This document shows, piece by piece, positions 8,754-63,690 of a DNA stretch of 64,000 nt. Below the pieces are notes generated by a model. It ran no database searches, was not told the DNA's origin, and was given only the letters and a program-made list of their open reading frames with translations. The DNA is from Trichobilharzia szidati. Its lineage: Eukaryota > Platyhelminthes > Trematoda > Strigeidida > Schistosomatidae. The stretch covers positions 20,467,710-20,531,709 of the forward strand of contig OX235271.1 of the NCBI GenBank assembly GCA_944472155.2, written 5' to 3'. Each line of letters begins with the position of its first letter. Within the stretch, counting starts at the first letter, position 1. Both the position numbers and the translations under genes were made by a program.

Positions 8754-8798
8754 TGAAGCCTACAATTATTTTATCTGTCTAGCCTATACGGTTTTGTG

Positions 8799-18162: not shown

Positions 18163-18164
18163 TC

Positions 18165-25333: not shown

Positions 25334-25335
25334 CT

Positions 25336-28011: not shown

Positions 28012-28018
28012 AAGTGTG

Positions 28019-30625: not shown

Positions 30626-30629
30626 GCCA

Positions 30630-34695: not shown

Positions 34696-35039
34696 ATCAA
34701 AGCATGTAGCTACATCAGGTGTTACAACTACGAATTAGACATTTTTCTTTCATATCTACCATGATATCATCGAGGATACTATATCACCACATGATGGTCG
34801 TTGAGTGAAATAAACGACGAGATAATGTCACCAATGACAACAAATCAATACTGTATAACATGGGAATTGCTTGTTGCAGAATGGAATGCTGTATTGAGGT
34901 GAATAAAAGATAAAATACTGTGTTGTACAGCGTTGGGAAGGAGAGATAAGCGAAAGACACATATATGGATGATCGATGACCCTCAATCCAAGTCCGGGGA
35001 TGATTGCATGGATGCATAAACCTGTTCAGCCTCAATACA
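34696..35039. other. Non-coding stretch
   Basis: Nothing recognised beyond short ORFs. Confidence 0.35.
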
Positions 35040-36340: not shown

Positions 36341-36344
36341 CGGA

Positions 36345-37340: not shown

Positions 37341-37399
37341 AATGTAATATCAGATTATCAGGTCTCCATCTAGAAAGGGGTTAACAAAGAGAATACCTA

Positions 37400-37700
37400 A
37401 AAAATATCGTCAAGGAAACTTAATTACCAAAGAGAATAGGCAAATAAAACAATGGACTGATCACTTCAAAGGACACTAAAATCGATCATTACCTGCAACT
37501 CGCCCAGCGGGACCGCGACTAACAACAGCACTCACAGAAATACCAGAGGTCACCAGTACTCTAACAAAAGGATAAATTTTGAATGCGATCAATATGCTGC
37601 AAGCCAAGAAGGCATTTGATTTGGACAGAATCTCTCTTGAAGAACTGAAAATGTATGTGATATGCCTACGTCATCATTGTCCGTAGTGCATAAGAAGGAA
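37400..37700 (+). mobile_element. RTE-type LINE fragment, plus strand
   Basis: Plus-strand translation gives ENRQIKQWTDHFKGH, a stop, then NRSLPATRPAGPR and FDLDRISLEEL. This is the same pre-RT block as the minus-strand fragment beside it, so the two lie head to head. Confidence 0.6.
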
Positions 37701-37939
37701 GGGTTCACCCAGTACGACAGATTAGTGTAAGTTTGACTATTACCACGAAGTTTTACTTGAAAGCAGTCACCTGAAATTGCGAAACTGACCACTGAGCGAA
37801 TTCAGACGTGAGCAATACCAGCAAATATGGCACGGTAAAATATTTGTTCAATCCATTATTTAGTCAACCAACACTATGTCAGTCAAGAGTGTTTTATTTC
37901 CTTGTGAATACTTGGATGGGTACTATTCATGAAGTGAGT

Positions 37940-40560: not shown

Positions 40561-40579
40561 CTGTCGCGTCTGCCTACTT

Positions 40580-41845
40580 CTACGTGCAATAATACTCATA
40601 CAGAAATGTTATACTACTTACTAATACGCAGTAATATGAATGCCAACACTCCCTGTTATTTCACAACCCTATCAGAATAAATGCTCATTTCAGTGGAATT
40701 GAATCTCATTTGATTCCACGGATAAAACAATTATTTCTATGTTACAGTCATACTCTACAACATCGCCTTGGTCTATTCTTCACATGATGAATCGATTTCG
40801 GTATCTCGACATTCTATTGTGTTGCTATTATTATTATTATTGTTCCTTTGTGTTACAAGTGGAACATAGGGCTTCAACAACTCATTTCCACTTTGTTCTA
40901 TTTTTCTCAGCCCTACTTACCTGACCACATGATTTTCAATATTCTCTCATCCTCTCCTCACACCATCTCCTCTATGTCATAACATTCTGAGGTCTCTTTA
41001 TTCACTGCGGCCTCTCTGTTCCACTTCAGTTTTCAATGTGTCGTGGAATTGTCTATTGACTTCCTTCGCACTCTTCTTCACTTCTTTACATTGTGCAACG
41101 TACACTGAACTCAGCTTCTCCTTCTGTTTTCCACCTTTGCATTTAGTCATCTTCCCTTTCACCATCTTCCCTCTTCTATCAGCTCACATGTGTCCGTTGG
41201 GATGAATTCCCCATCCTGCGATCAGTTTCAGCATAAAACGGTTGTTTTTACAACATCACCATCAGAGAGTTCCAGTGTTTTTCCACGGAGGTTTACACAT
41301 TGGTTCCACATTATGGCTCAGATTTTTGTCTGATATTTGCAGTTAATTTACCGCCTGTAGGTTTTCCCCTCAGTAACTTTCCTTCCACTTGAATTGAATC
41401 TTGCTCCCATAAGTCTGGATGAAACTGGTTCCCATTGCCTGAAGTTTCGGCTGCTACTGCTGACATCATGATAGCCACTGTCTGACTCAGTATGCTCATG
41501 GTTGTGGTGTTGGTGACCGGAGTAGATTATTGACACACCAGTTGACAATTTCTATAGTGCACATCCATTGCACCTGCTCTCGCAGATATCCAGCATTTCT
41601 ATGCCATATCTTCGCATTTCTTTGGCTACGTGGGCAGCCTAACCAGCCGGCTTCGTACGTTGTGTGAACATTCCACGTCCCCATTCTTACTCTTGCTTTC
41701 ATCGATAGACGACACATCTGATGTGTGACTGGCCTCTCGAAAGCTTCCACTAGCTGGCTGTGTCATTTCGCCTCTCCGATTCCTGCGAACAATAAGACCA
41801 TTTTTCCTGTCATTTATTTGCATTTTCAATATAAATTTTTTGTGT
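40580..41845 (-). repeat. Arm a' of the inverted duplication
   Basis: Reverse complement of 35040-36340. It starts only about 20 bases after arm b ends. Confidence 0.85.
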
Positions 41846-41915
41846 TGAATTTTATGTAGACGTTTGACTGACTTTGTGAAGTAGGGTGGCCAGCCTCATG
41901 CCGAACCCTTGCTCT
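40840..41915 (-). mobile_element. RTE-type LINE with internal deletion (in arm a'), with 5' UTR
   Basis: Same structure as 35110-36090. On this side the element can be followed further 5', to gggttcggcatgaggctggc at about 41910-41890. That is probably the RTE 5' UTR, and a related string lies in the SINE at 56605. Confidence 0.7.
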
Positions 41916-43655
41916 TTGTTCTGGCTTGAGAGTAGCTATAGAAGTCAAGAGTTAGTGAATTAGGTGAGGTCCAACTTTCATTTGAGACTAAAATCATAAT
42001 CACCATGCAAATTAATTAGAAAATATAAACATTAGATCATGTGAAATAATAGAAAGACGACTGCATCAAAGAATATTTCCATTGCGTTGAAGTCATGAAC
42101 TAGGATATACATTCGTCTTTTCATACTGAATGGGTGCGCCAGTTCGAGAACTTTTTCAGGTGAAGAGGCAAATTATTTAAATTTCAGATAGAGATTCAAC
42201 TGTAATCATAAACATGAAGGTCGTACAAAAATATTCGAATTATAGCTGCTGTCTTTTCGTTCAATCAGGAATCAAGCATATTCAAAGCAAAGTTGACATG
42301 ATGTTGGGATAACAGAGCAGAGAGGTACAACTGGGAAATCAATCAACGTAATATTATCAGAAATAAATGGTAATATTAAATAAGAAACGTAATGGGGTAA
42401 TAAGTATTGAGGGAGTTCATTTTATATAATCATCATTTTAAAAAGTATAGCTGGACGTATTTTTTCGAGTACATGTATATATATATGTATATATATCATG
42501 GACTTGAACATTTTGATTGCAAGTGCCCCAGCTATGCTGAGTTGTCTTGATCTCACTGCCTTTGAGAAGTTTGGTAGAATCTAATATTTGACATGGAAGG
42601 AATCTTCAATTGGATTTAGATTTTCAGGGCACACCAGATGTTCTGTTACCAAAATATATAAATTTTCGCCTTCTTCCTGCGCTAGCCATCGTGCCTTGTG
42701 TTTCCGAGAGTGTTTCACAATTGGACGCTCATACAGCCCCTGAGCAGTAGGTGAAGTGGCACTTGCATTTTGCACTTGTCTTGTTCCACTCACTCTCTTT
42801 CTCTGTCTCTATCTCTCTAGATCTATGTTAATTCTAAGCCATTTTTTCGTGATTTAGATTACCACTTCCTCTTGTCATCACCGACTATTTTATTGACAAA
42901 TATCTACCTTTTAATTTGATTAGAGAGTGTGGGGTATAATAGAACCGCCAAAAGCTTAGAAACTTTACCAGTTTCAGGTTGCATAATCTCACTCTTTCTT
43001 TTTACATAAATTTATATCAGTAATAAGTTCTGGATTCTGCATCGTTAGTTTTGGACGAATGAATATTGAATTTGTATTCGCCGTTCTTGATTTCTATGAT
43101 AAATTCTACGCAGGATATCTTCTAGACAAATGGTGCTGTTGAGTGCTTCTCTCATCTGACACTTGTAGTCAGAAAGGACTAGCAGAAAAGCTCATGTTAC
43201 GCTTATCCAAACACTATCAGCAGGTGTTTACACGTGGCCACCAATTTCTCCGTTTCAAAAAGGGTGGAGAAGTGAGCAAGAACGTCTGTTTTGGCTGGGG
43301 AGAAGCGATGACATACAAAACAGGAAAGGAGATAGAGGTGGCTATGTGAATTTCCAAGTCTCACGACAGCTGTATGTTTTTCGTATCAAAGCTGTATTGA
43401 GAAGTGTCAATCAACCCACTTGGTGAATGGCATAACTCGAGGCTCATAAACTTATGGGAAAAGTTGTGACATCTGATTGGATCAACTTGTTCACAGCTGG
43501 GTCGTTCGAAGAATAGTATGACGCTTCTCTCTCTGGAGTTGTGATTTTTAATTACTCAAAATCCGCTATCGACTCCTGACGAAATATTCACTTACATTTA
43601 TGGTTTCGTTTGAGATTCTCAATTAAAAGTGAGAAATAACACAGAAAACTATTGG
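41916..43655. other. Non-coding stretch
   Basis: A (TA)n-like run lies at 42475-42496. ORFs at 42581-42793 (minus) and 43143-43349 (plus) have no similarity that I can name. Confidence 0.4.
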
Positions 43656-43659
43656 AACT

Positions 43660-43760
43660 ATGCATGGAGGTCACAGATTTGCAAACATGAATACTGGAAT
43701 GATTTCCAAAACGTCTTCGACAAGTAGCATATAGGCTACTCTTTCATGGTTTGAAAAGAT
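43660..43760 (-). repeat. Short inverted match to 34591-34695
   Basis: See the partner at 34591. Confidence 0.6.
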
Positions 43761-43989
43761 GCAGTGAATTTAAAGAAGCATAAGAGCATTTCCGATGGAT
43801 AGGTTGAGATATGAGCATTCCAGTGATATGTCATTTTCAGTTTTAGTATTTCAATGCTCACAAACGCTTTCAAAGGAAGTTGAAGAAGTTTCAAGGTTCA
43901 CATTGTATTTAGAGAACGCGTACTGCAGGAAACCTAAAAGATTCAGTGGCTACAAGTATTTAACGAATGCTTGCAAGCAATAAAATCCA

Positions 43990-44690
43990 CTCTAGAAACG
44001 GAAAACGAGTCCGAAGTAGGCTTTATTGATGTGGAATAAACAAGACGGTCCTACGGAAACTAAAGAAGGTTATCTCATAGGAGACCAACCTTAAAAATGT
44101 CAATTAACAAGATTCTGCAGTTGGGTGGCTGTAGAACGAAAACGAAGTCTAATTAAATGCCTTGCCACTCGGGTCCCACGGATCTGTAGTGCTGAAACAA
44201 ACCACCATCCACAAGAGATATCTCAGAGATTCATGGACAAGAATATCAGACCAATAGTTCAGACGGACGAAACATTACTTGTTCCGGAAAACAAACTTCC
44301 CATGAACCAGGATTCCAAAGGAGACTTGGCTTGCGATATACTTAAGAGGAGAATTTCATGGTTTTATTTATTTTTTTTATTATTTTGATTTACTGCTTGA
44401 TTCCACACCGTATTTTCAGTACAAGTATGGAACTTTCATCATGGATATCGGTAGCCCAAATTCAGGCCGACCATAGATATCGGGTATGTTTGAGAACATT
44501 CCTAGCAGCAACTCTACAAGTAGTCCTCACCTATCGTCCATTGGTATGCAAAAGTCTTAAGGGCAAAATCTCACATCTGACCACTTCTGTGTATATATCA
44601 GTTCATCTGTTGCTGCACAACCAGGTATACTGGTCGTTCGACACATATCCTGTCCAAAAGGATTCGAGAACACTTTCGACTTATTTTTTC
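43990..44690 (+). pseudogene. Penelope-like element remnant interrupted by a SINE
   Basis: Plus strand: KRSLIKCLATRVPRICSAET (44134-44193) is the block after the RT palm. After a SINE insertion at 44375-44488 come RTFLAATLQVVLTYRPLVCK and, in a shifted frame, CIYQFICCCTTRYTGRSTH then LSKRIREH, the GIY-YIG endonuclease start. Frame breaks make it dead. Confidence 0.65.
44375..44488 (-). mobile_element. tRNA-derived SINE (family 1), 5'-truncated
   Basis: On the minus strand it matches the body and tail of the SINE at 27827-28011 (gatatctatggtcggcctg to ggtgtggaatcaagcagtaa and an A-rich end) but lacks the tRNA-like head. Confidence 0.7.
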
Positions 44691-45544
44691 TTTTATTCTT
44701 TTTCATTTGTCGTAGGAGTAGTAGAATTTTCCAGATGTCCGGGTGAATGGGTGTTGAATCATAACTATTCCACGTGTTCGCAGTTGATTCGATATACAAA
44801 ACCTCCCTTCACTTTGCCGTCACATTAGTTTCAAAACTGTCATCTTATTCCATCCATCCTATTGTATGGTTGTGTGTAATTGCATGTACTGCTATAGCTG
44901 AACCATTGTTCATATTGCTTACCCTGTTATGGAAGTCAAGCGATCTAGATTTTACAAGGGTTTTGTGCTTCGCTAGTCAGACTGACTCTGTTCTACTACT
45001 CTGACCTATGTATTTGACCTAACAATCATTGCAGGTAGGATATTGGGTAAAGTATATTGTTTTCTTTAACTGGCTTCACAGGATCCCTTGGACCACGATG
45101 CTTGTTTCTTATCGAGTTTTTGCGTTTGAATGTCACTTTCACTACTGCCTTGTTTAGAATTCTGCATGAGGTTTCCTATGTCTCATTATTGACAGTCCCT
45201 ATTGATGACTCGGTGCGAAGTAATAATCTTCAGAATTATCAATGCGCTATCATACAGATTCTATGTCAGACGGCCTCATCGCCTTTCGACTAGTTCCTGC
45301 CCACAAAGATCACATAATGAAGATTTCTGCCCCTTTTCTAACTCCCACACATTCACCCTCCTAGGCTGCACTTTACATTGCGTAACACGCTTTTCGAAGT
45401 AACATTTACCGGCATCTGATAAGCTTCATGATTTCTTAGTTCAAAATAACCACTAATGTGCAGCTCATGAAAGTGAAACCTCGAAGAGAAACTTTTCTCC
45501 ACTGTTTATGTCTGATGATTATGTTCTCAAAAGACTGAAGCACA
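44691..45544. other. Non-coding stretch
   Basis: Several plus-strand ORFs of 60-80 codons; none has a domain that I can name. Confidence 0.35.
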
Positions 45545-48310
45545 TTGAATCGGAGTTCCTTATTTGTGCGATCAGTCGACATGTGATAGAATTGAGTGTT
45601 TATTCAACTCATACAATCCTCAAGGATAGATTAATAGATTTGCAGTTTTGTAGACATGCTAACATTTGCTAACATAATCCAAGTCTTATTAAGATAGCCG
45701 CCACCTATGGATTTTGATGTTATTCACGTTTACTGCAGTCGTCAGGATGCCAATCAATTCCTCGTCATTCCTTCAAATTCTCTTCTTTTCGTCCTCAGAG
45801 TCTGTATCCTCTCACTCACTGCTACCAATATAATCTTTATCGTGTGACATAGAATCTCTTTTGTGGTCCATATGTTAATTGGAATGTTAATTGGACTCCT
45901 CTGTCACTGTCTTCTTTTCATATCTGTAAAAATTCAAACGATCAAATCAATCTTTGCACCTAAAATCTCGGATTCCCTATTGTCTAGATAATTCTTGTAC
46001 TGCCTGACTATCTTGATTAACTAGGTTCTGTGCACCGAAATATCCTGAATCTCATTCTGCTGAATGACAGAACATGCTTGTTGAATTTATTTGGAAAATG
46101 AAGAGTTAATTGATTTCCACCTAATGTACGATTACAGTATGCAATGGAAGCCCATATTGCAGTTGATTTCACGATCAATACACTACTTACTGTGCACCAC
46201 AACGAAGTGTGTGATGGAGGGATGTCCTGGAATTACTTATCATTTACAAGTGTGATTATTTTCTATACTACTTAATCTGTAGTAGTAGTAGTAATACACA
46301 CACCATGGTATAATCCATTCTTGGCAAATTACGTGACCTTAAACATAAAATAAATTGTACACATCGACGGAGAGAAGTACCCTTAATCATGAGAACAATG
46401 TGCACTGAGGTTCATCTCTTTCAGTCCAAATTATTCTGGATAGGTTTGTGGAGGGAAAGAGTACATCATATGTTGTTTATCACTGAAGCAAAATATAATG
46501 AATTATACACACATAATTTCATTGTAAGTGGCTCTATCAGAATATATGTTGTCCTCACTCACTTACACTTGGTGTGTGTGAAGCTTGTACTCATGTACAA
46601 TTGAATGTAGGTAATGAATGGTGAGAGCCGTAATCACAGCATTAGTATACACATCTAACTGTGGCACAATATGAAGGCGTAGTGCAAATGCAGTGTATCT
46701 TCATCGAGGTCTCAACAGTGCTTTTAGACATTGACTGAGGGTTGTTGCATCTTGATTAGTAAGAACAGTTACATAGACGAAGTTGTTGTTGTTGTTGCTG
46801 TCATGGTGAACCAATACTTTATATATATTATGTTATTTCTGTGATCTTCACATAAAAGCGATTTGATTATGCACCTATTCGAGTTATTCAACCTCATACT
46901 TAGAAGAAGACTGATCGAAGTCTTCATCTCAACTTTTATTATCTTTAAGATTGAGATATTTATAGTCGTTGGCGAAAGGAACTACAACATGCAAAGAACG
47001 ACGGTAGGTTGAAGCTACTTTTAGACTAGAGAATATCCTCCAATGAACTTTTATGCTTCTTATTGTCCAACAGTTCCCATTTCGACGGAATTCTAGGGCC
47101 ATCACAATTAGTGAATTGTGATTATAATCAGTGGTGACGGCTATGCGATAAAACATGTTATTTAATCTATGAAATTATTCTTACAGTGTTCAGATCTCGG
47201 CGGTGTTTGTAATCCTCGGTTCACTTGCCATTGTATAACGAGTCACTGTAACCGTCGAATCCTCATAATTTTACATCCACTTCTATGGTCCATACAATCT
47301 AGGAATGATTTTGTATATTGAATGATTTGATTTATCGATTCGCACTCAACTTTGATTATCATGACAATTCACAGCATTACTACTAGTATTAGTAGTAGCA
47401 GAAGTCTCAGTGTTGTTCAAATCTACTGTTTTCATTTCACTGCGAGATATGTTTTCTCAAAATCACAACTATATACGACAGTACAGCTTGACAATATACC
47501 TCTTGAAATGCGCCTCTCTGCTGAATGTTGTGTTCTGAAATCTGAAATATGTCTCTCCATGTTATGGTTAGCTTGTTATGAGTTGACGTGTTTGATTTGG
47601 TTACCTGGAAGCTTCTCGTAGCTTCTTGTGTATTTCATCTGAGCGTTACAAGCCTGAGTTAATGACATGACAGGATCATTGGTAGAGGGGTACATACAGA
47701 CCTGCAGATTGGAGTGGAATTGACAACATAAGAACTCAGACAGCGCCCAACTGATATCATTAGTCTTCATCTGAGCAGAACAATCATCTAGGATTATTCA
47801 ACCCACAAACGGAGGTGATGAGGCATTCAGAGTACCAGATATGAGGCCCGATCATGAGTCACATTCTAATAGTGAAAATAAGGGAGAATGATGTCCCATT
47901 GTTCTCAGCAGAGTTGAGAACACAACGAAATAATGAAGATGTAATGAGATGCAGCATGTTTTGAACATCGCTAAGCTGATTCGATGGATGAGATATCAAG
48001 CGTTTCAGCACAAACATCAGCCATAAATGTAAAACCAAGTAGACATGTTTGATGAGTGGGAAGTGCTATGAATGTTGCTGTGGTGAAAAAGTCATATCGT
48101 TAAGAGACAGTTGAAGGCGCACAGACTGTTCGCCGAGTTGTGAATGATCTGTTTGGAATAAAGCATCGGCAAAATGTTTTCAAGTGTGTGTTACGCAAAG
48201 GAGTAAAATTTGAGATTCATTCGTCACACCTACTAGTGGACTGTGGTTGTGTTGTGGCGCCTTCTTCGGTGTTTGAAGCAGAAACTACGGGGTGTATCAC
48301 TTATATTTCA
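45545..48310 (-). repeat. Arm b' of the second inverted duplication
   Basis: Reverse complement of 37940-40560. It is slightly longer because of small insertions, for example near 47080-47240. Confidence 0.85.
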
Positions 48311-48660
48311 CTCACTTTGCGAATAGTTGGCGGCCTGCTTAAATGTTGTGCTACCAAAATTTCCATCCAAAATATATTGCGTCTATTTGCTCGGATATAT
48401 TTTATTTTAATCATTCAGTTATGTGTCCTTATCTTGTTGTTTACTCTCGCGGTTATTTAAAACGTTCACAACCGGCTGTTTTACTAGTTTCTGACAAACT
48501 TAAGAAAAAGCCTCAAGGTGGAATGAAGTAAGCTTTAAAGCCTACTCCAATGCATTTGATGACTGTTCCTGTGGTTATGAGCACAAATTGCAGATCTCTA
48601 CCAAACAAGATTAATCACTTGTATTCTTTATTACAGTTTACAGTTTGCAATTTATTTAGG
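48311..48660. other. Non-coding stretch
   Basis: Nothing recognised. Confidence 0.35.
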
Positions 48661-52096: not shown

Positions 52097-52105
52097 TATA
52101 TAAAG
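52097..52105 (+). promoter_or_regulatory. TATA box of the candidate micro-exon gene
   Basis: TATATAAAG, a strong TATA match, 54 bases before the ATG at 52159. A start site 25-32 bases downstream (about 52127-52135) would give a 5' UTR of about 30 bases rich in AAG. Confidence 0.55.
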
Positions 52106-52158
52106 ACATGTTTCTATTTGCTCACACGTTTACGGCAAAGAAGAAGAAGAAGAAAAAG

Positions 52159-52237
52159 ATGATGATGATGAAGACGTTCTGTGCACTGTTGCTGATTGTT
52201 CAAGCGCTTACAATATTCATCAAGCCAAGCGAAGCAA
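52159..52237 (+). CDS. Micro-exon gene, exon 1 (signal peptide)
   Basis: Four in-frame ATGs, then KTFCALLLIVQALTIFI and KPSEA: 26 codons with a charged start, a hydrophobic core and a small-residue cleavage site after SEA. The exon ends in phase 1 before a perfect GTAAGT donor at 52238. The TATA box lies just upstream. A first exon that encodes little more than a signal peptide, followed by symmetric micro-exons, is the layout of schistosome MEGs, whose products are secreted. I do not recognise which MEG this is. In-frame upstream ATGs (52072, 52108) lie before the expected transcription start. No transcript evidence is available, and the downstream exons are inferred. Confidence 0.6.
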
Positions 52238-54343
52238 GTAAGTACAATCTTGTTTCAAATAGAATTTGACATATTCAAAACAGTTTACTCTCATTGGCGT
52301 ACCACATTTTAAATGTATTTATCACTTTATAAAAACCACAATCATGTCAAAGTTAATCTGATTCACATAAGTTATATTGAGTTGTGTAATTTAAGTACAC
52401 AGATATGTCTTTCCGATTTATTCGATGAAATTTCTTCATTATGACAACAGCAGACATTGTAGACATTATTATTATTATTGTTCCCTTGGGTTCCTAGTGG
52501 AACATAGGGCTTCAACTGCACGTCTCCACTTGCTTCTGTCTTCTGCTGTTCTTTTCACTTGCGTCCATGTTATTCCATACTGTTTCATCTCCTCCTCACA
52601 CGATCTCCTCCATGTCACCCTTGGACGTCCCACTCGATGCTTCCCTTTCGGGTTCCACTCGAGGGCTTGACGCGCGATGTCACTCAACGGCCTCCTCAGC
52701 GAGTGTCCAATCCATCTCCACTTCCTCCTGCATATTTGTTGGGCGATTGGTTCCTGTTTCGTTTGTTCCCATAGCTTCTTGTTTGTGATTCTTTCTGGCC
52801 ATCGAATCTTCAGTATGGAGCGAAGACAGTTGTTGATAAAGGTCTGCAACAGGCTGTTGGAAATATTCTTGGTGACCCGCCAAGTTTCTGATCCGTAAAG
52901 CAAAATTGACTTGACGTTTGTATTGAAAATCCGAATTTTGTTGTTGATGGTGAGTGACGAAGATTTCCAGATTGGTTTCAGGTTGATGAATGTGTTTCTC
53001 GCCTTCCCGATTCTCGAATTGACATCCTCGTCCGTTCCTCCTGTAGTTGAGACAATGCTCCCCAGATAGGTGAAAGAATTAACCTCTTTCAAATCCCTCC
53101 CGTTGATGGTGATTGGCACTGGATGTTGCTGCTGCTGTTGTTGGTTGGTTATTTTCATAACCTCCGTCTTGTCTATGTTCACCTGGAGTCCTGTCTTTGC
53201 TGCTTCTTCGACCAGTTTGTCGGTTTTCGCTTGTAAGTCTTCGATTTTGTGTGACATCAAACATAAATCATCCACGCGCGAAATCCAGGTCTTCTAGGTT
53301 CTTCACGTCGGTCCAGGATATCCCTGTCTTCTCGTTTCCCACTGTCTGACGCATAATCCAGTCCACCACAATTACGAATATCATTGGTGATAGTAAGCAC
53401 CCTTGTCTGACTCCTTTGTTTACTCCAAACGCTTCGCTGAGTTTTCCGTTGTGGATCAGTTGACATGTGCCGTTGTCGTACAGTTGTTGAATAAGGTTGA
53501 TGAATATTTGCGGTACACCGTAGTACTCGAGTAGTTTCCAAATTACTTCGCGGTCTTTTATTGTAGACATTAGGAATACTCAAATGGAAACAACTCAAGA
53601 CAAACTTACAATATTCCACTGAATTATCGAAACATCACGAACATATATATATATATATATATACAACAGAGACTGATAAAAGAATTTTCACGTTATCCAA
53701 TGCACTGCCCAATAAATAATGAAATATTCAATAGGCCTTACCACTAAAATTGAGAAGAAGAGGGCAAAATGCAACTGCAAACAACTGATATCATTGCTAG
53801 GAAAAAAATTCAATATCTAGTTGAACAGCGCCAAACACAGGTTGTGGGCAAAAACCGGTGTTATAATCCACACTAAGCATATTGGCAGACATGGTTATAA
53901 TAATTGCTGAAATTCCGTCTGATTCTCAAGCCCCGACATAACAAAAATTATACCAGAGAATTAAACGACGAAATCAGTCGCATAAAATCGATCACAATCT
54001 TTCATAGTAGACACGAAAATTCATTGCAAAGAAATACAAACGTCACAAAAAAAAGACAGTGTTATACGTTACAGAACACAGTGTTTCAAATCACCATTCG
54101 TAAATGAAATTCAATACGTGTACAGAACCGATCTGGATAGGCACAACAAATTATGAAAACCTTGTGCAATGACACAAACTAGTATTGTGAAGAAGTGGTA
54201 TTCGGTGTATGGTTATGTCCTCACAGAGAAAGAATGAACGTGCAAGTGATTTGTTATGTTTCCAATGTATTAACATAAATACGCAGTTGTTTAATTCAAA
54301 TCAATTACAAATATCTTCATTACTATTTTCACTGAATTAAAAG
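52238..54343 (+). other. Candidate intron 1 of the micro-exon gene
   Basis: Runs from the GTAAGT donor to the acceptor before micro-exon 1. It contains a recent RTE insertion (52469-53559) and a (TA)n run at 53643-53664. No other exon candidate with AG and GTRAGT borders was seen in it. Confidence 0.45.
52469..53559 (-). mobile_element. RTE-type LINE, 5'-truncated copy E
   Basis: Bounded by a perfect 13-bp target-site duplication attgtagacatta (52456-52468 and 53560-53572). A 266-codon open stretch runs from DDLCLMSHKIEDL to the end of the ORF (STRNPREQ), with SILLYGSETW, KIRWPERITNKKLWEQ and CRRKWRWIGHSLRRPL. Just upstream, at the catalytic motif, a frame break separates it from LSEAFGVNKGVRQGCLLSPM. 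It is the best preserved RTE here and a recent arrival in the intron. Confidence 0.9.
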
Positions 54344-54355
54344 ATTATTACCCAA
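54344..54355 (+). CDS. Candidate micro-exon 1 (12 nt)
   Basis: ATTATTACCCAA between the acceptor gaattaaaag and a perfect GTAAGT donor. In the phase left by exon 1 it reads N-Y-Y-P. It shares only 3 of 12 bases with the exon in the next repeat copy, although the surrounding sequence is about 90% alike. Confidence 0.5.
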
Positions 54356-54762
54356 GTAAGTATCATTGATGAATGTATTCTGTTTATTATCAAGTCACAT
54401 AGTAGAATTTGGAAGAATATAAGTGTCAGCATTATGAAGATTTGACACGAATAACTACGCACTTTTTTATTTGAAATTTCTTTCAAATATCTTTTTTTAT
54501 TTAAAATAATTTAACAGGGTTTGGACACAAACAAATTGATGATTACTGACATGAATAAATGGAAAGAATAAATCAAATTAACTAGGCAGATACAACATAA
54601 ACAGGCATCAGAGTGGGGAATTTTAAATATGTTGAATATGAGGATACAGATAAGGTGTGAAATAACATTCAGCACATGCTGAGTAAACTCAAACTGTGCC
54701 GTTCCAAATAAATCGGGTAGGCGTAACTCTCCGTGCCCATAATGGAACAACTGATTTCTCAG

Positions 54763-54768
54763 TAGATT
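54763..54768 (+). CDS. Very weak candidate 6-nt micro-exon (TAGATT)
   Basis: ctgatttctcag, TAGATT, gtaatg. It recurs in the same place in the other copies (near 55771, 57031 and 59916), with a poorer donor in one. The length is a multiple of three and phase 1 avoids the TAG. Unlike the 12-15 nt exons it does not vary, so it may be chance. Confidence 0.12.
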
Positions 54769-55349
54769 GTAATGCAAGCGATTTGTGGAAGTCAGTTCGA
54801 TGGAGATCAGAATTGAAATGAACCAACCAAACAGTGTTAGCAGAAATCAGTGTTGCGCTGCACAGTCAGCATACTGTCAGACGTGCTTGTAATCACTCCT
54901 AGGTTGTCGTGTCCTTCTCAAACCCAGACGTCACCTCCTGCAGTCGAGAATTGAGGCTTCTGTCTTCTTTCCTCTTCAATCTCTCGTCCATCTTGTCAGT
55001 AGACAACCACGCACATCAATCACAGATAGAAGCAATCAATCATCACAAAGACTCTGAGGATGTTACTGGTTTCTGAACAGAGTGTTTCAATTCAATTCAC
55101 CATTCGTAAATGAAATTCAATACGTGTAAAGAACCGATCTGCATAGGCACAACATATTATGAAAACGTTGTGCAATGACACAAACTAGTATTGTGAAGAA
55201 GTGGTATTCGGTGTATGGTTATGTCCTCACAGAGAAAGAATGAACGTGCAAGTGATTTGTTATGTTTCCAATGTATTGACATAAGTACGCAGTTGTTTAA
55301 TTCAAATCACTTACAAATATCTTCATTACTATTTCTACTGAATTAACAG

Positions 55350-55361
55350 CGTTTCGTGATA
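55350..55361 (+). CDS. Candidate micro-exon 2 (12 nt)
   Basis: CGTTTCGTGATA between gaattaacag and GTGAGT, after a pyrimidine-rich tract. Reads T-F-R-D in phase 1. Confidence 0.5.
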
Positions 55362-56355
55362 GTGAGTATCATTGATGAAAGCATTTTGTTCATTATAAAG
55401 TCAATTAGTAGAATTTGGAAAAATATAATTATCAGCATTATGAAGATTTGACACGCATAAAAACGCAGCTGTTTATTTGAAATTTCTTTCAAATACCATT
55501 TTTTATTTAAAATAATTTAACAGGGTTTGGACACAAACAAATTGATGAATACTGACATGAATAAATGGAAAGAATAAATCAAATTAACCAGGAAGATACA
55601 CTATAAACAGGCATCAGAGTGGGGAATTTTAAATATGTTGAATATGAGGATACAGATAAGGTGTGAAATAACATTCAGCACATGCTGAGTAAACTCAAAC
55701 TGTGCCTTTCCAAATAGATCAGGTAGGCGTAACTCTCAGTGCCCATAAGGGAACAACTGATTTCTCAGTAGATTGTAATGCAAGCGATTTGTGGAAGTCA
55801 GTTCGATGGAGATCAGAATTCAAATGAGCCAACCACACAGTGTTGGCAGAAATCAGTGTTGCGCTGCACAGTCAGCATACTGTCAGACGTGCTTGTAATC
55901 ACTCCTAGGTTGTCGTGTCCTTCTCAAACCCAGACGTCACCTCCTGCAGTCGAGAATTAAGGCTTCTGTCTTCTTTCCTCTTCAATCTCTCGTCCATCTT
56001 GTCAGTAGACAACCACGCACATCAATCACAGATAGAAGCAATCAATCATCACAAAGACTCTGAGGATGGTACTGGTTTCTGAACAGAGTGTTTCAATTCA
56101 ATTCACCATTCGTAAATGAAATTCAATACGTGTACAGAACCGATCTGCATAGGCACAACATATTATGAAAACGTTGTGCAATGACACAAACTAGTATTGT
56201 GAAGAAGTGATATTCGGTGTATGGTTATGACCTCACAGAGAAAGAATGAACGGGCAAGTGATTTGTTATGTTTCCAATGTATTTACATAAATACGCAGTT
56301 GTTTAATTCAAATCACTTGCAAATGTCTTCATTACTATTTCTACTGAATTAACAG

Positions 56356-56367
56356 CGTATCGTGATA
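56356..56367 (+). CDS. Candidate micro-exon 3 (12 nt)
   Basis: CGTATCGTGATA between gaattaacag and GTGAGT. Reads T-Y-R-D in phase 1. Differs from micro-exon 2 by one base, a Phe to Tyr change. Confidence 0.5.
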
Positions 56368-56604
56368 GTGAGTATCATTGATGAAAGCATTTTGTTCATT
56401 ATAAAGTCAATTAGTAGAATTTGGAAAAATATAATTATCAGCATTATGAAGATTTGACACGCATAAATACGCAGTTGTTTATTTGAAATTTCTTTCAAAT
56501 ATTTTTTTTAATTTAAAATAATTTAACAGGGTTTGGACATAAACAAATTGATGAATACTGACATGAATAAATAGAAAGAATAAATCAAATTAACTAGGCA
56601 GATA

Positions 56605-56843
56605 GTGCGTCGGTGGCATAGCGGTTAGGACGCTCGCCGACCATGCACATGGTCCAGGGTTCGATCCCCGGCCGGCGCACTCCTTTACCTCGCTAAGCCA
56701 GAAATAAAAAGCTGGTGAAGAGGAAAGGTTGGGCATGAGGCTAGCAACCCCATCCTGTAAAAATAAACACTGCTACTGAAACTTCAAGCCTCTAGCTTGA
56801 AGCCCTATGTTCCACTGGGAACGTGAAGGAATAAAAAAAAAAA
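56605..56843 (+). mobile_element. tRNA-derived SINE (family 3) with RTE-like body and tail
   Basis: Perfect 13-bp target-site duplication aactaggcagata (56592-56604 and 56844-56856). Head: acceptor-stem-like pairing of gtgcgtc with ggcgcac, A box TGGCATAGCGG at 56614-56624, B box GGTTCGATCCC at 56658-56668. The middle (gggcatgaggctagcaac) resembles the RTE 5' UTR and the tail (ttgaagccctatgttccact) matches the RTE 3' end, followed by a long A-tract. The intact structure and duplication make it the youngest element in the array. Confidence 0.9.
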
Positions 56844-57613
56844 AACTAGGCAGATACAACATAAACTGGCATCAGAGTGGGGAATTTTAAATATGTTGAA
56901 TATGAGGATACAGATAAGGTGTGAAATAACATTCACCACATGCTGAGTAAACTCAAACTGTGCCGTTCCAAATAAATCGGGTAGGCGTGACTCTCAGTGG
57001 CCATAAGGCAACACCTGATTTCTCAGTAGATTGTTATGCAAGCGATTTGTGGAAGTCAGTTCGATGGAGATCAGAATTCAAATTAGCCAACCACATAGTG
57101 TTAGCAGAAACCAGTGTTGCGCTGCACAGTCAGAATACTGTCAGACGTGCTTGTAATCACTCCTAGGTTGTCGTGTCCTTCTCAAACCCAGACGTCACCT
57201 CCTGCAGTCGAGAATTAAGGCTTCTGTCTTCTTTCCTCTTCAATCTCTCGTCCATCTTGTCAGTAGACAACCACGCACATCAATCACAGATAGAAGCAAT
57301 CAATCATCACAAAGACTCTGAGGATGGTACTGGTTTCTGAACAGAGTGTTTCAATTCAATTCACCATTCGTAAATGAAATTCAATACGTGTACAGAACCG
57401 ATCTGCATAGGCACAACATATTATGAAAACGTTGTGCAATGACACAAACTAGTATTGTGAAGAAGTGATATTCGGTGTATGGTTATGACCTCACAGAGAA
57501 AGAATGAACGGGCAAGTGATTTGTTATGTTTCCAATGTATTTACATAAATACGCAGTTGTTTAATTCAAATCACTTGCAAATGTCTTCATTACTATTTCT
57601 ACTGAATTAACAG

Positions 57614-57625
57614 CGTATCGTGATA
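57614..57625 (+). CDS. Candidate micro-exon 4 (12 nt)
   Basis: CGTATCGTGATA, identical to micro-exon 3, between gaattaacag and GTGAGT. It lies in the last full-similarity part of the array. Confidence 0.5.
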
Positions 57626-57789
57626 GTGAGTATCATTGATGAAAGCATTTTGTTCATTATAAAGTCAATTAGTAGAATTTGGAAAAATATAATTATCAGC
57701 ATTATGAAGATTTGACACGCATAAATACGCAGTTGTTTATTTGAAATTTCTTTCAAATATCTTTTTTTTTATTTAAAATATTTTAACAG

Positions 57790-57801
57790 GGTTTGAACCG
57801 T
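57790..57801 (+). CDS. Candidate micro-exon 5 (12 nt)
   Basis: GGTTTGAACCGT between a T-rich tract ending ttttaacag and a perfect GTAAGT donor. Reads R-F-E-P in phase 1. The intron after it resembles the intron after the other micro-exons (taggatttggaaatatataa; gatgaggatttgacac). In repeat copies 1-3 the same acceptor is present (54517, 55523, 56527) but the donor is not, because the copy junction lies there. Confidence 0.5.
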
Positions 57802-57809
57802 GTAAGTTT

Positions 57810-58001
57810 TTAGTTCTGTAAACATTTTGTATTATATAATTTTTCACAGTAGGATTTGGAAATATATAATTATCCGCATGATGAGGATTTGACACTCCAT
57901 TTAATGCCTCTTGATATCTGAACATGGATTCGACTAATTTATTTTCAACAAAGTTATTGTGGATAACAACCGATATATTGCAGATTGAATGATGGGTGAA
58001 T
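57810..58001. other. Intron-like sequence after micro-exon 5
   Basis: Resembles 60515-60690, the sequence after micro-exon 6, for example gtattgcctc/aatgcctctt and aacaaagttattgtggataa. Confidence 0.5.
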
Positions 58002-58200
58002 TTTTGTGCATTGGTAGCACTGTGGTTAAGATTCTAGGCGACCATTCACATGGTCCTGGGGTTTTTCTGCTGTCGACGCACACTTTGTAACTATCATCGC
58101 TCTGCTAATTTTGCGCTACCGATATCATATGCTGGAATTTCCATACATATACCAAAAATACTGTGCGGTTTCTATCTATAATCAAATTAATCAGTATCTT
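58002..58200 (+). mobile_element. tRNA-derived SINE (family 1), decayed copy
   Basis: gtgcattggtagcactgtgg head and gaccattcacatggtcctgg, with the B box badly mutated. The body has ctgctaattttgcgctaccg and a tail like the other family 1 copies. Confidence 0.55.
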
Positions 58201-58605
58201 CATGCAATGACAAATATACAGCTGATAAAATGAATATTCCTAGGATGAACGTTTATGCACATCTTTCAACATGAAAATTAATAATTTTGATGAAGCAATA
58301 TGAAGTCATAATGTGCCTGTATCGTATAATTATTTTTGCGCGACTCATACCGAAGTATCTGATAACCATGGACTTTGCATAGGAATATATTTGTTATTTT
58401 TATAAAGTGTGAAGTGTTAATGAAATAGATTCAGGTCAAGTTGAAACGATATATTCAATGTCAAAATTACAATAAAATCCACTTAATCAAATAGCAAAGG
58501 TTATAGTACATCTGCTATGGTATCAAAACCAAAAATTTACGAAAAATTGTTGAATTTGATGACGAATTGCATTTAAACACCGACAAGTGGTGTAAACTCT
58601 CTAAA
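58201..58605. other. Non-coding AT-rich stretch
   Basis: Nothing recognised. Confidence 0.4.
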
Positions 58606-59265
58606 TGCTAGTGCTTACTTTTACTTTACTTCGGCTATCTCTTACGGAAGGATGAGCCGGCTTCATGAACTTCTCAAATCATCGCTACCCAGGCGCAGCG
58701 ATCTGATGAAGAGAGTTTACGAAGTTTCATGGGAATTTGGTACGAGTGATGTCCCCAGAACCACTCGGCCTTTTGTTTGAGAGTGAAGCTCTAGCCTTTA
58801 CACAACCAAGTGTGACCTACAAGGCAGTAGGAGTGGAGTACGGAGTCAACTATCCATTGGCAGCCGGTGACCGGAGTTCGGTTCATACGCCTTTTTGAAT
58901 GGGGCCAGACATGCAGGACATCCAACAAGCCCTTTGTCCATACGTCTGCCGGTGAGCTCCAGTGAGCTTCATACGCCAGTCGTTGGAGGTTTGGAATCAG
59001 GGTTTAGCCATCTCCCCTAGACTGTCATCCAATGGACAGTCAACCCGGTGAAGAGCGCCGGGCATCCGCTTTCGCCCTCTCACTTTGGTGAAAAACACCT
59101 CCGCCACGTGAAGGCAGTGAATAGGACTTCCTCAGGAGAGGCTATGTAAGACGCCCGGTCATATGGGAGCATTTCAAGAGGTGTGCGGAGGGGTGGCACA
59201 CCCGCAGCGCAAGGCACCCACCCCCGACCATCCTGAGGCTTTAGAGGCCTAGTGTTTACACAAAA
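58606..59265. mobile_element. GC-rich inserted element, unidentified
   Basis: About 650 bases clearly richer in G+C than the flanks. Near-identical 10-mers ctagtgctta and ctagtgttta stand at its two ends and may be a target-site duplication. No long ORF. It could be the 5' UTR or non-coding part of a retroelement. Confidence 0.4.
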
Positions 59266-59684
59266 TTAAAGATACGCCGCAAACATGGTTTACTGGGCAT
59301 CACTGTTATTTTTACAATAAATACCTCCTTTTCACTTAAAATAAGTCTATATTCTCACACATAGAAACTCTTCATTAAATTCATAAATATTCCAATGAAA
59401 AATGCATTTGTCATGGAATTGTTCGAAAAGAGTTCCATAGAATATTGAAATACACAAAATAATAATATTGTAGAATTGATATATATTTCAAAATATATAA
59501 CAAACAAATGCTATTGAATTAAAAATGATTTCATGTTGAAAATAAGTCAATAAATGTTTTCATCCCAATGCATGAAGTATAAAAGTCAGTTCTCTCGAAA
59601 TGTGTTCACTAAATACATATTATAAAATTACGGAGAGTCAGGATACACCCAAGAGAAAATGTTTCAACCGAAGTGACATAAAAA
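59266..59684. other. Non-coding AT-rich stretch
   Basis: Nothing recognised. It leads into the sequence (aaattgatgaatactgacat) that is also found at the junctions inside the tandem array. Confidence 0.4.
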
Positions 59685-60480
59685 AATTGATGAATACTGA
59701 CATAAAATATGCAAAGAATAAATCAAATTAACTAGGCAGATACAACATAAACAGGCATCAGAGCGGGGAATTTTAAATATGTTGAATATGAGGATACAGA
59801 TAAGGTGTGAAATAACATTCACCACATGCTGAGTAAACTCAAACTGTGCCTTTCAAATAAATCGGGTAGGCGTAACTCTCCGTGCCCATAAGGGAACAAC
59901 TGATTTCTCAGTAGATTGTAATGAAAGCGATTTGTGGAAGTCAGTTCGATGGAGATCAGAATTGAAATGAACCAACCACACAGTGTTAGCAGAAATCAGT
60001 GTTGCGCTGCACAGTCAGCATACTGTCAGACGTGGTTGTTATCACTACTAGGTTGTCGTGTCCTTCTCAAACCCAGACGTCACCTCCTGCAGTCGAGAAT
60101 TAAGGCTTCTGTCTTCTTTCCTCTTCAATCTCTCGTCCATCTTGTCAGTAGACAACCACGCACATCAATCACAGATAGAAGCAATCAATCATCACAAAGA
60201 CTCTGAGGATGGTACTGGTTTCTGAACAGAGTGTTTCAATTCAATTCACCATTCGTAAATGAAATTCAATACGTGTAAAGAACCGATCTGCATAGGCACA
60301 ACAAATTATGAAAACGTTGTGCAATGACACAAACTAGTATTGTGAAGAAGTGATATTCGGTGTATGGTTATGTCCTCACAGAGAAAGAATGAACGGGCAA
60401 GTGATTTGTTATGTTTCCAATGTATTTACATAAATACGCAGTTGTTTAATTCAAATCACTTACAAATATCTTCATTACAA
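59685..60480 (+). repeat. Tandem repeat, copy 5
   Basis: Repeats the second part of the unit (aaattgatgaatactgac to gaacagagtgtttc) and the next marker at about 60247. After 60480 it diverges from copies 1-4. Confidence 0.85.
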
Positions 60481-60494
60481 TTTTGATTCAATAG

Positions 60495-60509
60495 CCGAGA
60501 CAAGATTTA
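60495..60509 (+). CDS. Candidate micro-exon 6 (15 nt)
   Basis: CCGAGACAAGATTTA between gattcaatag and GTGAGT. Reads S-E-T-R-F after micro-exon 5 and keeps the frame (15 = 5 codons). It is at the same place in the repeat as micro-exons 1-4 but unlike them in sequence and one codon longer. Confidence 0.5.
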
Positions 60510-60805
60510 GTGAGTGTCACTGATAAAAGCATTTTGTTCATTATAAATTACACAGTAGAATTTGCAATAGATATAATTAACAGCATGATGAAGATTTGAC
60601 ACTTCAGGTATTGCCTCATGGAGTCTGAACATGGATCCGACTAATTTATTTCAACAAAGTTATTGTGGATAACAACCGATAAACCGCTGGTGCGATTATG
60701 AGTAAACAAGTATCACCATGCAATGACAAATATACAGCTAATAAAATGAAAATACACAGGATGAATTTTTGTGCACATTTTTCAACATATGCATTCATAA
60801 TTTTT

Positions 60806-62668
60806 ATTATTGTATTATTGTTCCTTTGGGTTCCTAGTGGAACATAGTGATTTAACCACACCTCTCCACTTGTTTCTCTCTTCTGCTCTAGTTTCCACCT
60901 GCATCCATGTTACTCCATACTGTTTCAGCTCCTCTTCACACGATCTCCTCCATGTCACTCTTGCACTGACGTCCCACTCGCCGCTTCATTTTCGGGTTCC
61001 ACTCGACCACTGGCCTGACTCACGATGTCACCCAGCGGCCTCCTCAGCGGGTGTACAATCCATCTCCACTTTCTCCTGCACATTTGTTGAGCGATTGGTT
61101 CTTGTTTTGTTTGTTCCCATAGTTTCTTGTTGGTGATTCTGTCCGGCCATCTGATCTTGAGTACAGAACGAAGACAGCTTTTGATAAAGGTCTGCAACAT
61201 GTTGGAAATATTCTTCTGACCCGCCAAGTTTCTGATCGGTATAGAAGAACTGACTGACTTGACGTTTGTATTGAAAGTCCGAATTTTGTTGTTTATGCAG
61301 GCTGAGTGAGTGACGAAGATCTCCGGATTGGTTTCAGGTTGATGAATGTGTTTCTCGCCTTCTCGATTCTCGCTCGATTTGACATCCTCGTCCGTTCCTC
61401 CTGTAGTTGAGACAATGCTCCCTAGATAAGTGAAAGAAGTAACCTCTTTCAAATCCCTTCCGTTGATGGTGATCGGCGCTGGATGTTGCTGTTGTTGTTG
61501 TTGTTAAGTCTTCGATTTTGTGTGACAGCAAACATAAATCATCCACGCGCGAAATCCAGGTCTTCTAGGTTCTTCACGTCGGTCCAGGATATCCCTGTCC
61601 TCTCGTTTCCCACTGTCTGATGCATAATCCAGTCCACCACAATTAGGAATATCATTGGTGATAATAAGCACCCTTGTCTGACTCCTGTGTTTACTCCAAA
61701 CGCCTCGCCGAGTTTTCTGTTGTGGATCACTTGACATGTGCCGTTGTCGTATAGCTGTTGAATAAGGTTGATGAATATTTGGGTACGCCGTAGTACTCGA
61801 GTAGTTTCCAAATTACTTCGCGGTCAACGCTGTCGAAGGCCTTCTCAAAGTCTATAAAGTTGAGGTAGAGGTTTGATTGCCATTCCATGCTTTGTTCTGT
61901 GATGATGATGCGTATAGTTGCAATTTGGTCAGAACATGATTTGCCTTTCGTGAATCCAGCTTGTTCTGGTGGGGCTGGTGGAGTTCTGTATCCAGTGCGT
62001 CCTTTATTCTCTCCAGAATGATGCGACACAGGATTTTACTTGGCATCGACAGGAGCATGATTTCTCGCCAGTTCTTGCAGACTCCTAGGTCGTCCTTCTT
62101 TAGTAGTTTCACGAGGTAACCTTTCCTTCAGTCAGTAGGAACTTTTCCCTCCTTCCAGACCTTTCGCAATAATGGAGTCTGCATATCTGCTGTCGTCTCT
62201 GGGTCCGCTTTCAGTGCTTCAGGGGGTATTCTATCCGGTCAAGCTGCTTTTCCAGCTATCAGAAGCTTGACTGCATTCAAGACTTCAGCTTTCATTGGAG
62301 GATTGGTGTCAACTTGCAGTTGTGTACGTGCTGTTGTTGGTATTTCTGGACGAGTTGCAGGTGGTGGTCTGTTCAAGAGTCCTTTGAAGTGGTCCGCCCA
62401 TTGTTTAATCTGTCTTTCTTGCTTGGTAGTTTGGTCCCCTTGGCTGTCTTTTATAGGTTTCACTTGTGTTGGTCTCTTCCCGGATAGAGAATTGGTTATC
62501 TGGTATAATGTCCTCAGAACCATTTCGCCTGTCACCTTCTCAGCTTCAGAGGACAGGCTGTCGTAGAAATGAAAATTCTATTACCTGGAACTCTTCTTCA
62601 CTTCATTGGTCAGTGCTGTGTAACCTGAGCTCAGCGACTCTTTCTCTAGTCCCTCCTTAACTCATTTA
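60806..62668 (-). mobile_element. RTE-type LINE, copy F
   Basis: From the RTE 3' segment at 60806 to the pre-RT region (QERQIKQWADHFKGLLNRPP, about 62395-62430) and a short piece of linker beyond. Holds the RT palm (FEKAFDSVDREVIWKLLEYY), LGEAFGVNTGVRQGCLLSPM, the disrupted catalytic motif (about 61540-61555) and the C-terminal domain. Several frameshifts. It splits a copy of the tandem repeat. Confidence 0.85.
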
Positions 62669-62689
62669 TTTATCATGAAAATAAGTCAA

Positions 62690-63260
62690 AATGTGCCTCA
62701 ATCCCAAAGGATGCAGTATCAAAGTCAGTTCGCTGGAGACCAGAATTCAAATGAGCAAAACACAGAGTGTTAGGAGAAATCAGTGTTGCGCTGCACAGTC
62801 AGCATACTGTCAGACGTGCTTGTAATCACTCCTAGGTTGTCGTGTCCTTCTCAAACCCAGACGTCACCTCCTGCAGTCGAGAATTAAGGCTTCTGTCTTC
62901 TTTCCTCTTCAATCTCTCGTCCATCTTGTCAGTAGACAACCACGCACATCAATCACAGATAGAAGCAATCAATCATCACAAAGACTCTGAGGATGGTACT
63001 GGTTTCTGAACAGAGTGTTTCAATTCAATTCACCATTCGTAAATGAAATTCAATACGTGTAAAGAACCGATCTGCATAGGCACAACAAATTATGAAAACG
63101 TTGTGCAATGACACAAACTAGTATTGTGAAGAAGTGATATTCGGTTTATGGTTATGTCCTCACAGAGAAAGAATGAACGGGCAAGTGATTTGTTATGTTT
63201 CCAATGTATTTACATAAATACGCAGTTGTTTAATTCAAATCACTTACAAATAACTTCATT
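62690..63260 (+). repeat. Tandem repeat, copy 6 (5'-shortened)
   Basis: Starts within the unit (aaagtcagttcgctggagac) and includes the conserved ctcctgcagtcgagaattaa block and the marker at about 63027. Confidence 0.85.
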
Positions 63261-63281
63261 ATTATTTTGATTTGAAAAAAG

Positions 63282-63293
63282 GGAAACACCATA
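63282..63293 (+). CDS. Candidate micro-exon 7 (12 nt)
   Basis: GGAAACACCATA between tttgaaaaaag and GTGAGT. Reads R-K-H-H in phase 1. The acceptor is purine-rich just before the AG, so it is weaker than the others. Confidence 0.4.
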
Positions 63294-63300
63294 GTGAGTG

Positions 63301-63690
63301 TCCCTGATGAAAATATTTATTTAACTTTCAAATTCATTGTATTCTGCTCAGTGAATAAATTTGTTTTCAACAACTTCATATTCATGCCTTACCGTCATGT
63401 TTATATTTCTGAAAGTTTTATTAAGTGGCACTAAATAATTGCTCTGGCAATATAATCATATGTGATAAGAATTACGATAATTAAAATGTTTAAAGCTGTA
63501 GTGCTGAAGTGGATAAATTACAAAATTATTATAGATTGTTTTATAAGTGAATTGAAATCAGAAATGTTTTTCAAATGTCAAGTGTTGTCTGAACATTTTA
63601 AAAATTTAGGAGTGCGATTGCGATAAGAATGAAGATGTGAAGTGAAGTGGAAAGAATTCAAGTGGTAAAATAAAATGGAAACTAGAAAGA
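63301..63690. other. Non-coding AT-rich stretch
   Basis: Presumed intron. No terminal exon of the micro-exon gene was found here, so it may end outside the window. Confidence 0.4.

What the first reader, a model, noticed from the sequence alone, without database searches (positions are those of the whole stretch)
52097..63293. A previously unannotated-looking micro-exon gene on the plus strand
Seen: a TATA box, a signal-peptide exon ending at GTAAGT, then seven sites where an AG and a GTAAGT/GTGAGT are separated by exactly 12, 12, 12, 12, 12, 15 and 12 bases. Known: schistosome MEGs combine a signal-peptide exon with many short exons whose lengths are multiples of three, and use them to vary secreted proteins. 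Inference: this is such a gene, with terminal exons outside the window or not recognised.
Basis: partly seen in the sequence, partly recalled or inferred. Interest (0 to 1): 0.92.

Follow-up and report, generated by a model that had tools for sequence, protein, structure and literature searches.

The report
Micro-exon gene in a bird blood fluke
This stretch of the bird blood fluke Trichobilharzia szidati very likely carries a gene for a secreted protein built from tiny coding pieces of 12 to 15 letters, one of about fifty related copies, in which the coding pieces have changed more than much of the repeated DNA between them.

Summary
In detail: TATA box (52097), a phase-1 signal-peptide exon (52159-52237) and seven AG-N12/15-GTRAGT sites exist as described. 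Six of the seven lie in copies of one ~1-kb tandem repeat, so they are not independent. Contig lengths identify the organism as Trichobilharzia szidati, an avian schistosome. Comparison between copies supports a real micro-exon gene. Promoter and signal exon recur at 40 scored loci, all 40 with open frame, TATA and donor, and at 47 loci by protein search at E <= 0.05. Of 34 homologous unit sequences compared, 30 keep AG-12/15-GTRAGT although exon letters differ widely. In a paralogue on C5, the first 28 mature residues of an annotated protein can be read off five phase-1 micro-exons of 12-21 nt. The gene is duplicated 83 kb downstream; an eighth micro-exon lies beyond the window. No annotated protein for this locus turned up, no terminal exon was identified, and no RNA was available. 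Best reading: a new, apparently Trichobilharzia-restricted family of the known MEG class.

The parts
52097..52105 (+). TATA box of the gene
   Evidence: TATATAAAG; an ATATAAAG box kept in 40 of 40 aligned loci
52159..52237 (+). exon 1: 26 codons of a hydrophobic signal peptide plus one base (phase 1), followed by GTAAGT
   Evidence: open in 40 of 40 loci, pN/pS 0.37 over 17 haplotypes
52469..53560 (-). reverse-transcriptase-like repeat inserted in intron 1 (ends approximate); empty site in paralogues, including the duplicate gene
   Evidence: similarity stops at 52468 and resumes at 53560; frame 52478-53293 matches DUF6451 at E 1.4e-16 and RVT_1 at E 3.3e-5, the latter below its curated cut-off; flanking repeat TTGTAGACATTA at 52457 and 53561
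54344..54355 (+). micro-exon 1 (12 nt, phase 1-1)
   Evidence: identical in the duplicate gene
55350..55361 (+). micro-exon 2 (12 nt)
56356..56367 (+). micro-exon 3 (12 nt)
56605..56844 (+). SINE-like insertion in the intron between micro-exons 3 and 4, making that unit 1258 instead of 1006 bp
   Evidence: spacing; flanking repeat ACTAGGCAGATA at 56593 and 56845; SINE nature is my reading of the sequence
57614..57625 (+). micro-exon 4 (12 nt), identical to micro-exon 3
57790..57801 (+). micro-exon 5 (12 nt), older copy of the unit
   Evidence: one substitution in the duplicate gene
60495..60509 (+). micro-exon 6 (15 nt)
   Evidence: identical in the duplicate gene
63282..63293 (+). micro-exon 7 (12 nt); micro-exon 8 follows outside the window at L001:3777-3788
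   Evidence: identical in the duplicate gene and in a third copy at C1:21.04 Mb
54085..63323 (+). array of repeated intron units, each carrying one micro-exon
   Evidence: families D1-D8

Best explanation
It is the 5' part of a micro-exon gene of a family so far seen only in Trichobilharzia. Shown from sequence: a TATA promoter and a conserved signal-peptide exon are followed by at least eight predicted symmetric phase-1 micro-exons of 12 or 15 nt, each in its own copy of a ~1-kb repeated intron unit, and the whole gene is duplicated 83 kb downstream with a different set of cassettes. Inferred: the primary transcript is cis-spliced from exon 1 through the micro-exons to an unrecognised terminal exon, giving a short secreted peptide made of blocks of four or five residues. 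Because every micro-exon is symmetric, any can be skipped, added by unit duplication or lost without shifting the frame. Much of each intron unit stays alike through recent duplication or gene conversion while the exon letters change, probably under diversifying pressure. Inferred from the MEG class only: the product is released at the host interface.
For: Signal exon, TATA and donor intact in 40 of 40 scored loci, pN/pS 0.37, gap fraction 0.003 in the coding core against 0.10 in the intron. 39 of 43 unit hits lie 0.7-20.1 kb downstream, on the same strand, of a signal-exon hit. AG-12/15-GTRAGT in 30 of 34 unit sequences compared. Annotated T. szidati protein P0006 agrees with micro-exons of 18, 18, 15, 21 and 12 nt in locus L081 over 28 residues; P0005 differs at one of them (the fifth exon alone). 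P0003 and P0004 of T. regenti differ by five residues just after the signal peptide, as inclusion of a 15-nt exon would give. Gene A against gene B: exon 1 and the five corresponding cassettes differ at 2 of 141 bases, flanks at 2.9%; the difference is not significant by itself.
Against: No RNA evidence. No terminal exon or polyadenylation site convincingly found in 32 kb downstream. Acceptors are weak by a generic matrix, and the forward strand is not enriched. In 4 of 34 units compared the 12/15-nt cassette is absent or altered (L063, L070, L079, L080), and the tail units of genes A and B at window-relative 72015 and 151635, left out of the 34, lack it too. Exon openness does not single out phase 1: 14 of 14 distinct exons are open in phase 1 and 14 of 14 in phase 0, 7 of 14 in phase 2. 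None of the 9 database proteins returned has this locus's signal variant. The signal-exon constraint is moderate: distance 0.120 against 0.147 in intron 1, and differences by codon position are 243, 458 and 479, so second positions vary nearly as much as third.
Confidence: 0.85

Rival explanations
1. The unit is a dispersed repeat or transposon whose AG and GTRAGT spacing was copied by amplification and is never spliced.
For: Units are repeats and the region is rich in reverse-transcriptase-like fragments.
Against: 39 of 43 unit hits lie just downstream, same strand, of a signal-exon hit; the other four form one cluster (the hit list is a lower bound). Splice sites and exon length persist in divergent units while the letters between them differ. 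An annotated protein agrees with the same kind of exon in L081.
Confidence: 0.05
2. The locus is a recently dead or silent member of a real micro-exon family: signal exon and cassettes are intact but it lacks a working 3' end or is not expressed.
For: No terminal exon found; insertions in intron 1 and intron 4; a tail unit without a good acceptor in three copies; another copy has lost its acceptor (L070); no annotated protein for the locus was returned.
Against: Exon 1 and all eight cassettes of gene A are open. The five cassettes that have a counterpart in gene B differ at 1 base in total. The two insertions noted lie inside introns.
Confidence: 0.1

Closest known systems
Schistosome micro-exon genes (MEG class; reviewed in PMC10526429, parts 1-3 of 5 read)
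   Same: Signal peptide, many symmetric exons of a few codons, long introns, clustered gene copies, transposable elements nearby
   Different: The two protein searches returned no Schistosoma protein at E up to 10. One signal exon is shared by about 47 loci in one species; that review counts 35 S. mansoni genes in 23 numbered families
MEG transcripts of Trichobilharzia szidati and T. regenti (PMC6362228, passages read; MEG-4, MEG-8/9 and MEG-26 relatives in T. regenti, PMC5825161, passages and section 23 read)
   Same: Same genus; PMC6362228 reports 10 T. szidati MEG transcripts, some not close to S. mansoni MEGs
   Different: Those were found by similarity to Schistosoma references; whether any belongs to this family could not be checked
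Hymenolepis microstoma MEG cluster with a shared N-terminal motif (PMC7653826, passages read)
   Same: Ten MEGs in one region share a conserved motif and expanded by tandem duplication
   Different: Tapeworm family with another motif; repeated intron units with changed exons are not described in the passages read
MEG-26 with repeated exon length pattern (PMC5825161, passages read)
   Same: Internal duplication of a block of micro-exons
   Different: There a protein motif is repeated; here the exon letters of the repeated units mostly differ. The same paper (section 23) already suggests new MEGs by duplication and shuffling of micro-exons

Membership tests
MEG class (working definition in PMC7653826) | micro-exons under 70 nt and divisible by three | tested here: met
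   12 or 15 nt at eight predicted exons; 12-21 nt in paralogue L081, agreeing with annotated protein P0006
MEG class (working definition in PMC7653826) | at least seven exons, at least half of them micro-exons, run of at least four | tested here: inconclusive
   nine predicted exons, eight of them consecutive micro-exons, but splicing is not shown and the 3' end is unknown
MEG class | signal peptide in the first coding exon | tested here: met
   hydrophobic N-terminal exon open in 40 of 40 loci; no signal-peptide program was run
MEG class | symmetric exon phases | tested here: met
   the listed micro-exons are multiples of three and follow a phase-1 exon; 14 of 14 distinct ones are open in phase 1, but also in phase 0; phase 1 agrees with annotated P0006 in L081
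MEG class | protein variants by exon skipping | not testable with these tools
   no RNA; P0003/P0004 of T. regenti differ by five residues, which is only suggestive
MEG class | expression in glands or host-exposed tissue | not testable with these tools
   no expression data on hand
numbered MEG families of Schistosoma | sequence similarity to a named family | tested here: not met
   6 and 9 proteins returned by two searches, Trichobilharzia only; sensitivity is limited to shared five-residue words and to a length range, and no MEG family profile was run

The most novel reading that the evidence does not exclude
The locus is a diversifying array: one intron unit with one micro-exon is copied in tandem, much of the intron is kept alike by recent copying or gene conversion, and the exon cassette, held between fixed splice sites at 12-21 nt, is driven to new letters. 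Peptide variety would thus be made by cassette turnover, in a family of about fifty loci that share one promoter and signal exon.
Probability: 0.4. Interest if true: 0.72.

Novelty: new member of a known kind. Interest (0 to 1): 0.52.

Why it matters
How micro-exon genes gain and change their exons is hard to trace, because exons of 12 nt hold too little sequence; duplication and shuffling of micro-exons has been suggested (PMC5825161 section 23). Here the repeated introns supply the trace: which unit came from which can be read from about 1 kb of intron, so changes in the exon can be counted. In the most telling pair, micro-exons 1 and 2 differ at 9 of 12 bases while their flanks differ at 18 of 230. 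The family also looks under-annotated: the two searches returned 4 T. szidati entries standing for 8 sequences, against 47 signal-exon loci, with the reservation that those searches see only certain lengths and shared words.

Tried and rejected
A typed acceptor-exon-donor pattern on the whole genome gave no match; it was too specific to mean anything. Generic splice matrix scan: not enriched on the plus strand, 18 forward against 28 reverse candidates in gene A and 20 against 29 in gene B. Terminal exon by acceptor plus short phase-1 frame with a downstream AATAAA, kept between genes A and B: 12 candidates, none convincing. The tail unit at window-relative 72262 (in L001/L002 territory) could encode eight residues and a stop, but its AAG acceptor proves nothing. 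Finding the mature part of T. regenti P0004 or T. szidati P0001 in the genome by protein search: 60 of 61 matches in each search fell on the signal part; the last was weak (E 7.2 and 8.95). Rfam on the window: no match. Pfam on nine related proteins: nothing above a curated cut-off. A simple claim that divergence is confined to exons was given up: between C1 units the 20-120 bp downstream also diverge (13-41% in most pairs), 6 of 21 testable pairs show no exon excess, and in the C5 gene the peak spans about -64 to +127. The gene A profile was not used beyond about 250 bp, where it runs into unique sequence and the SINE-like insertion.
Full report
Check of the finding. Six AG-N12-GTRAGT in 11.6 kb compare with a shuffle mean of 0.37, and 0 of the remaining 32 plus-strand GTRAGT of the window have that spacing; the 15-nt spacing alone is not unusual. 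The sites are not independent. Direct repeats of about 1006 bp carry six of them at the same position, 84-92% identical to the reference copy over 300 bp around the exon and 95-97% identical over the aligned mid-intron part; the seventh aligns as an older copy.

Where it is. The window is 20467710-20531709 of contig C1 in an assembly of 1.11 Gb and 907 contigs. Protein searches returned proteins named as Trichobilharzia szidati on contigs of 216,928,370 and 68,640,173 bp, the lengths of C1 and C5. So the organism is T. szidati, a schistosomatid (lineage); that it is a bird parasite is stated in PMC6362228 (abstract in the listing).

The gene and its duplicate. The promoter and exon 1 recur 83 kb downstream at 97% identity, within a broken block of similarity from at least 48.0-99.4 kb to 131.9-176.2 kb. 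Gene A has predicted micro-exons encoding, exon by exon, NYYP, TFRD, TYRD, TYRD, RFEP, TETRF, RKHH and, outside the window, RTHY. Gene B has NYYP, RYND, RLEP, TETRF, RKHH and RTHY. So the copies differ in number and content of cassettes. Exon 1 (78 of its 79 bases compared) and the five corresponding cassettes differ at 2 of 141 bases, flanks at 2.9%, which is too little to prove constraint. Part of a third copy lies at C1:21.04 Mb on the minus strand; its two comparable micro-exons are identical to gene A's while its flanks differ by about 5 to 13%. No signal-exon hit lies within 25 kb upstream of it.

The family. A DNA search with promoter and exon 1 scored 40 of 55 candidates; all 40 have E <= 4.5e-27 and lie on C1, C2, C5, C6, C7 and four small contigs. 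All 40 have an open frame from ATG to a phase-1 GTAAGT and an ATATAAAG box. The last 66 coding bases give 17 haplotypes with pN/pS 0.37. Indels are nearly absent there (gap fraction 0.003 against 0.10 in the intron), but substitution is only a little lower than in the intron (0.120 against 0.147), and second codon positions vary nearly as much as third (458 and 479 differences). A protein search with P0001 gave 61 matches: 47 have E <= 0.05 and include the 40; 13 on C2 are weak signal-like matches; one is probably noise. A search with P0004 gave 61 matches, 60 on the signal part. The tool calls such counts lower bounds.

The cassette. A search with one unit gave 43 matches, with 40 of 51 candidates scored. 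Of the 43, 39 lie 0.7-20.1 kb downstream, on the same strand, of a signal-exon hit; the other four are the third copy. I compared 34 unit sequences: 14 from genes A and B and the 20 small stretches fetched; further hits were not fetched, and the tail units of genes A and B (72015 and 151635), which lack a cassette, were left out. Of the 34, 28 have AG-N12-GTRAGT and 2 have AG-N15-GTRAGT. The others are L063 (no cassette), L070 (acceptor AG lost), L079 (donor changed) and L080 (18 nt). Twelve representatives, chosen among those with a 12-nt cassette, have 36% mean identity in the exon against 76% in the intron 25-100 bp upstream and 66% downstream; for six C1 units 52% against 95% upstream and 67% downstream. 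The 100% identity of AG in that table follows from the choice and is not evidence. Micro-exons 1 and 2 of gene A differ at 9 of 12 bases with 18 of 230 in the flanks (binomial P 1.9e-8, uncorrected). Of 28 pairs among eight C1 units, 21 have equal exon length and could be tested; 15 reach P < 0.05 and six do not (A2-A3, A2-A4, A3-A4, A7-A8, A7-B2, A8-B2). The pairs share units and are not independent.

Check in a paralogue. The C5 gene starting at 29246410 has the signal exon of the annotated proteins P0005 and P0006. In the 9 kb after it (L081) the mature sequence begins in micro-exons of 18, 18, 15 and 21 nt, all phase 1; the scan finds these and a fifth of 12 nt that fits the next residues, 28 residues in all for P0006, with P0005 differing at one. 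The scan also gives two overlapping candidates that match nothing. The exons are about 1.29 kb apart, in units 85-92% alike over stretches of 1 kb or more, and the divergence among four units peaks at the exon (0.53 from -64 to +127, 0.00-0.33 elsewhere). I do not know whether that annotation used RNA reads. A C6 gene (L082) has three 12-nt candidates in units, two of them 1.66 kb apart and identical.

Relation to what is known. Micro-exon genes are a known class: small symmetric exons, signal peptide, host-exposed products (PMC10526429 parts 1-3 of 5; PMC4350168 abstract, sections 9 and 12 and passages). PMC4350168 reports higher dN/dS in mature parts than in signal peptides and species-specific expansions. 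T. szidati MEG transcripts are reported in PMC6362228 (passages), and T. regenti relatives of MEG-4, MEG-8/9 and MEG-26 in PMC5825161 (passages and section 23). A tapeworm MEG cluster with a shared motif is reported in PMC7653826 (passages). A role of one MEG, MEG-8.2, in lysing host cells is reported in PMC12998952 (abstract and passages); nothing links this family to it. Searches for Trichobilharzia with micro-exon or microexon gave 7 and 5 papers, and for micro-exon, schistosom, tandem and intron 10 papers. In those listings and the passages read I saw no account of this signal-exon family or of repeated intron units with changed exons. The original MEG paper (PMC2909574) is not held and could not be checked.

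Mechanism. Shown from sequence: architecture, family conservation, cassette turnover, and agreement with an annotated protein in a paralogue. Inferred: transcription from the TATA box, cis-splicing, secretion, free skipping of symmetric exons, and a role at the host interface. A plausible course is unit duplication, homogenisation or recent copying of introns, and selection for new exon letters. Relaxed constraint alone would not make exons diverge faster than introns, but replacement of short exons by recombination would, and the data do not separate this from point substitution.

Noticed in passing
window 7797-8759, minus strand: Open frame with a strong type I phosphodiesterase/nucleotide pyrophosphatase match (PF01663, E 5.2e-63); a frame at 4630-4965 on the same strand gave no Pfam match.
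   Followed up: partly
window 12935-30632: Large tandem duplications (for example 14750-20093 against 21918-27267 at 94%), with a reverse-transcriptase fragment (19043-19537) and CTAA-type simple repeats.
   Followed up: no
window 35038-48327: Inverted pairs of 1.0-1.6 kb at about 94-96% identity, such as 38991-40550 against 47085-45540.
   Followed up: no
T. szidati C2:33.86-34.17 and C2:49.78-50.08 Mb: Weak signal-exon-like matches, some in close head-on pairs; perhaps an older branch of the family.
   Followed up: no
P0001, P0005, P0006, P0009: These annotated family members are rich in cysteine, unlike the cassettes of the window's gene; Pfam gave no match at E 1 for three of them and one sub-threshold match for P0006.
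   Followed up: partly
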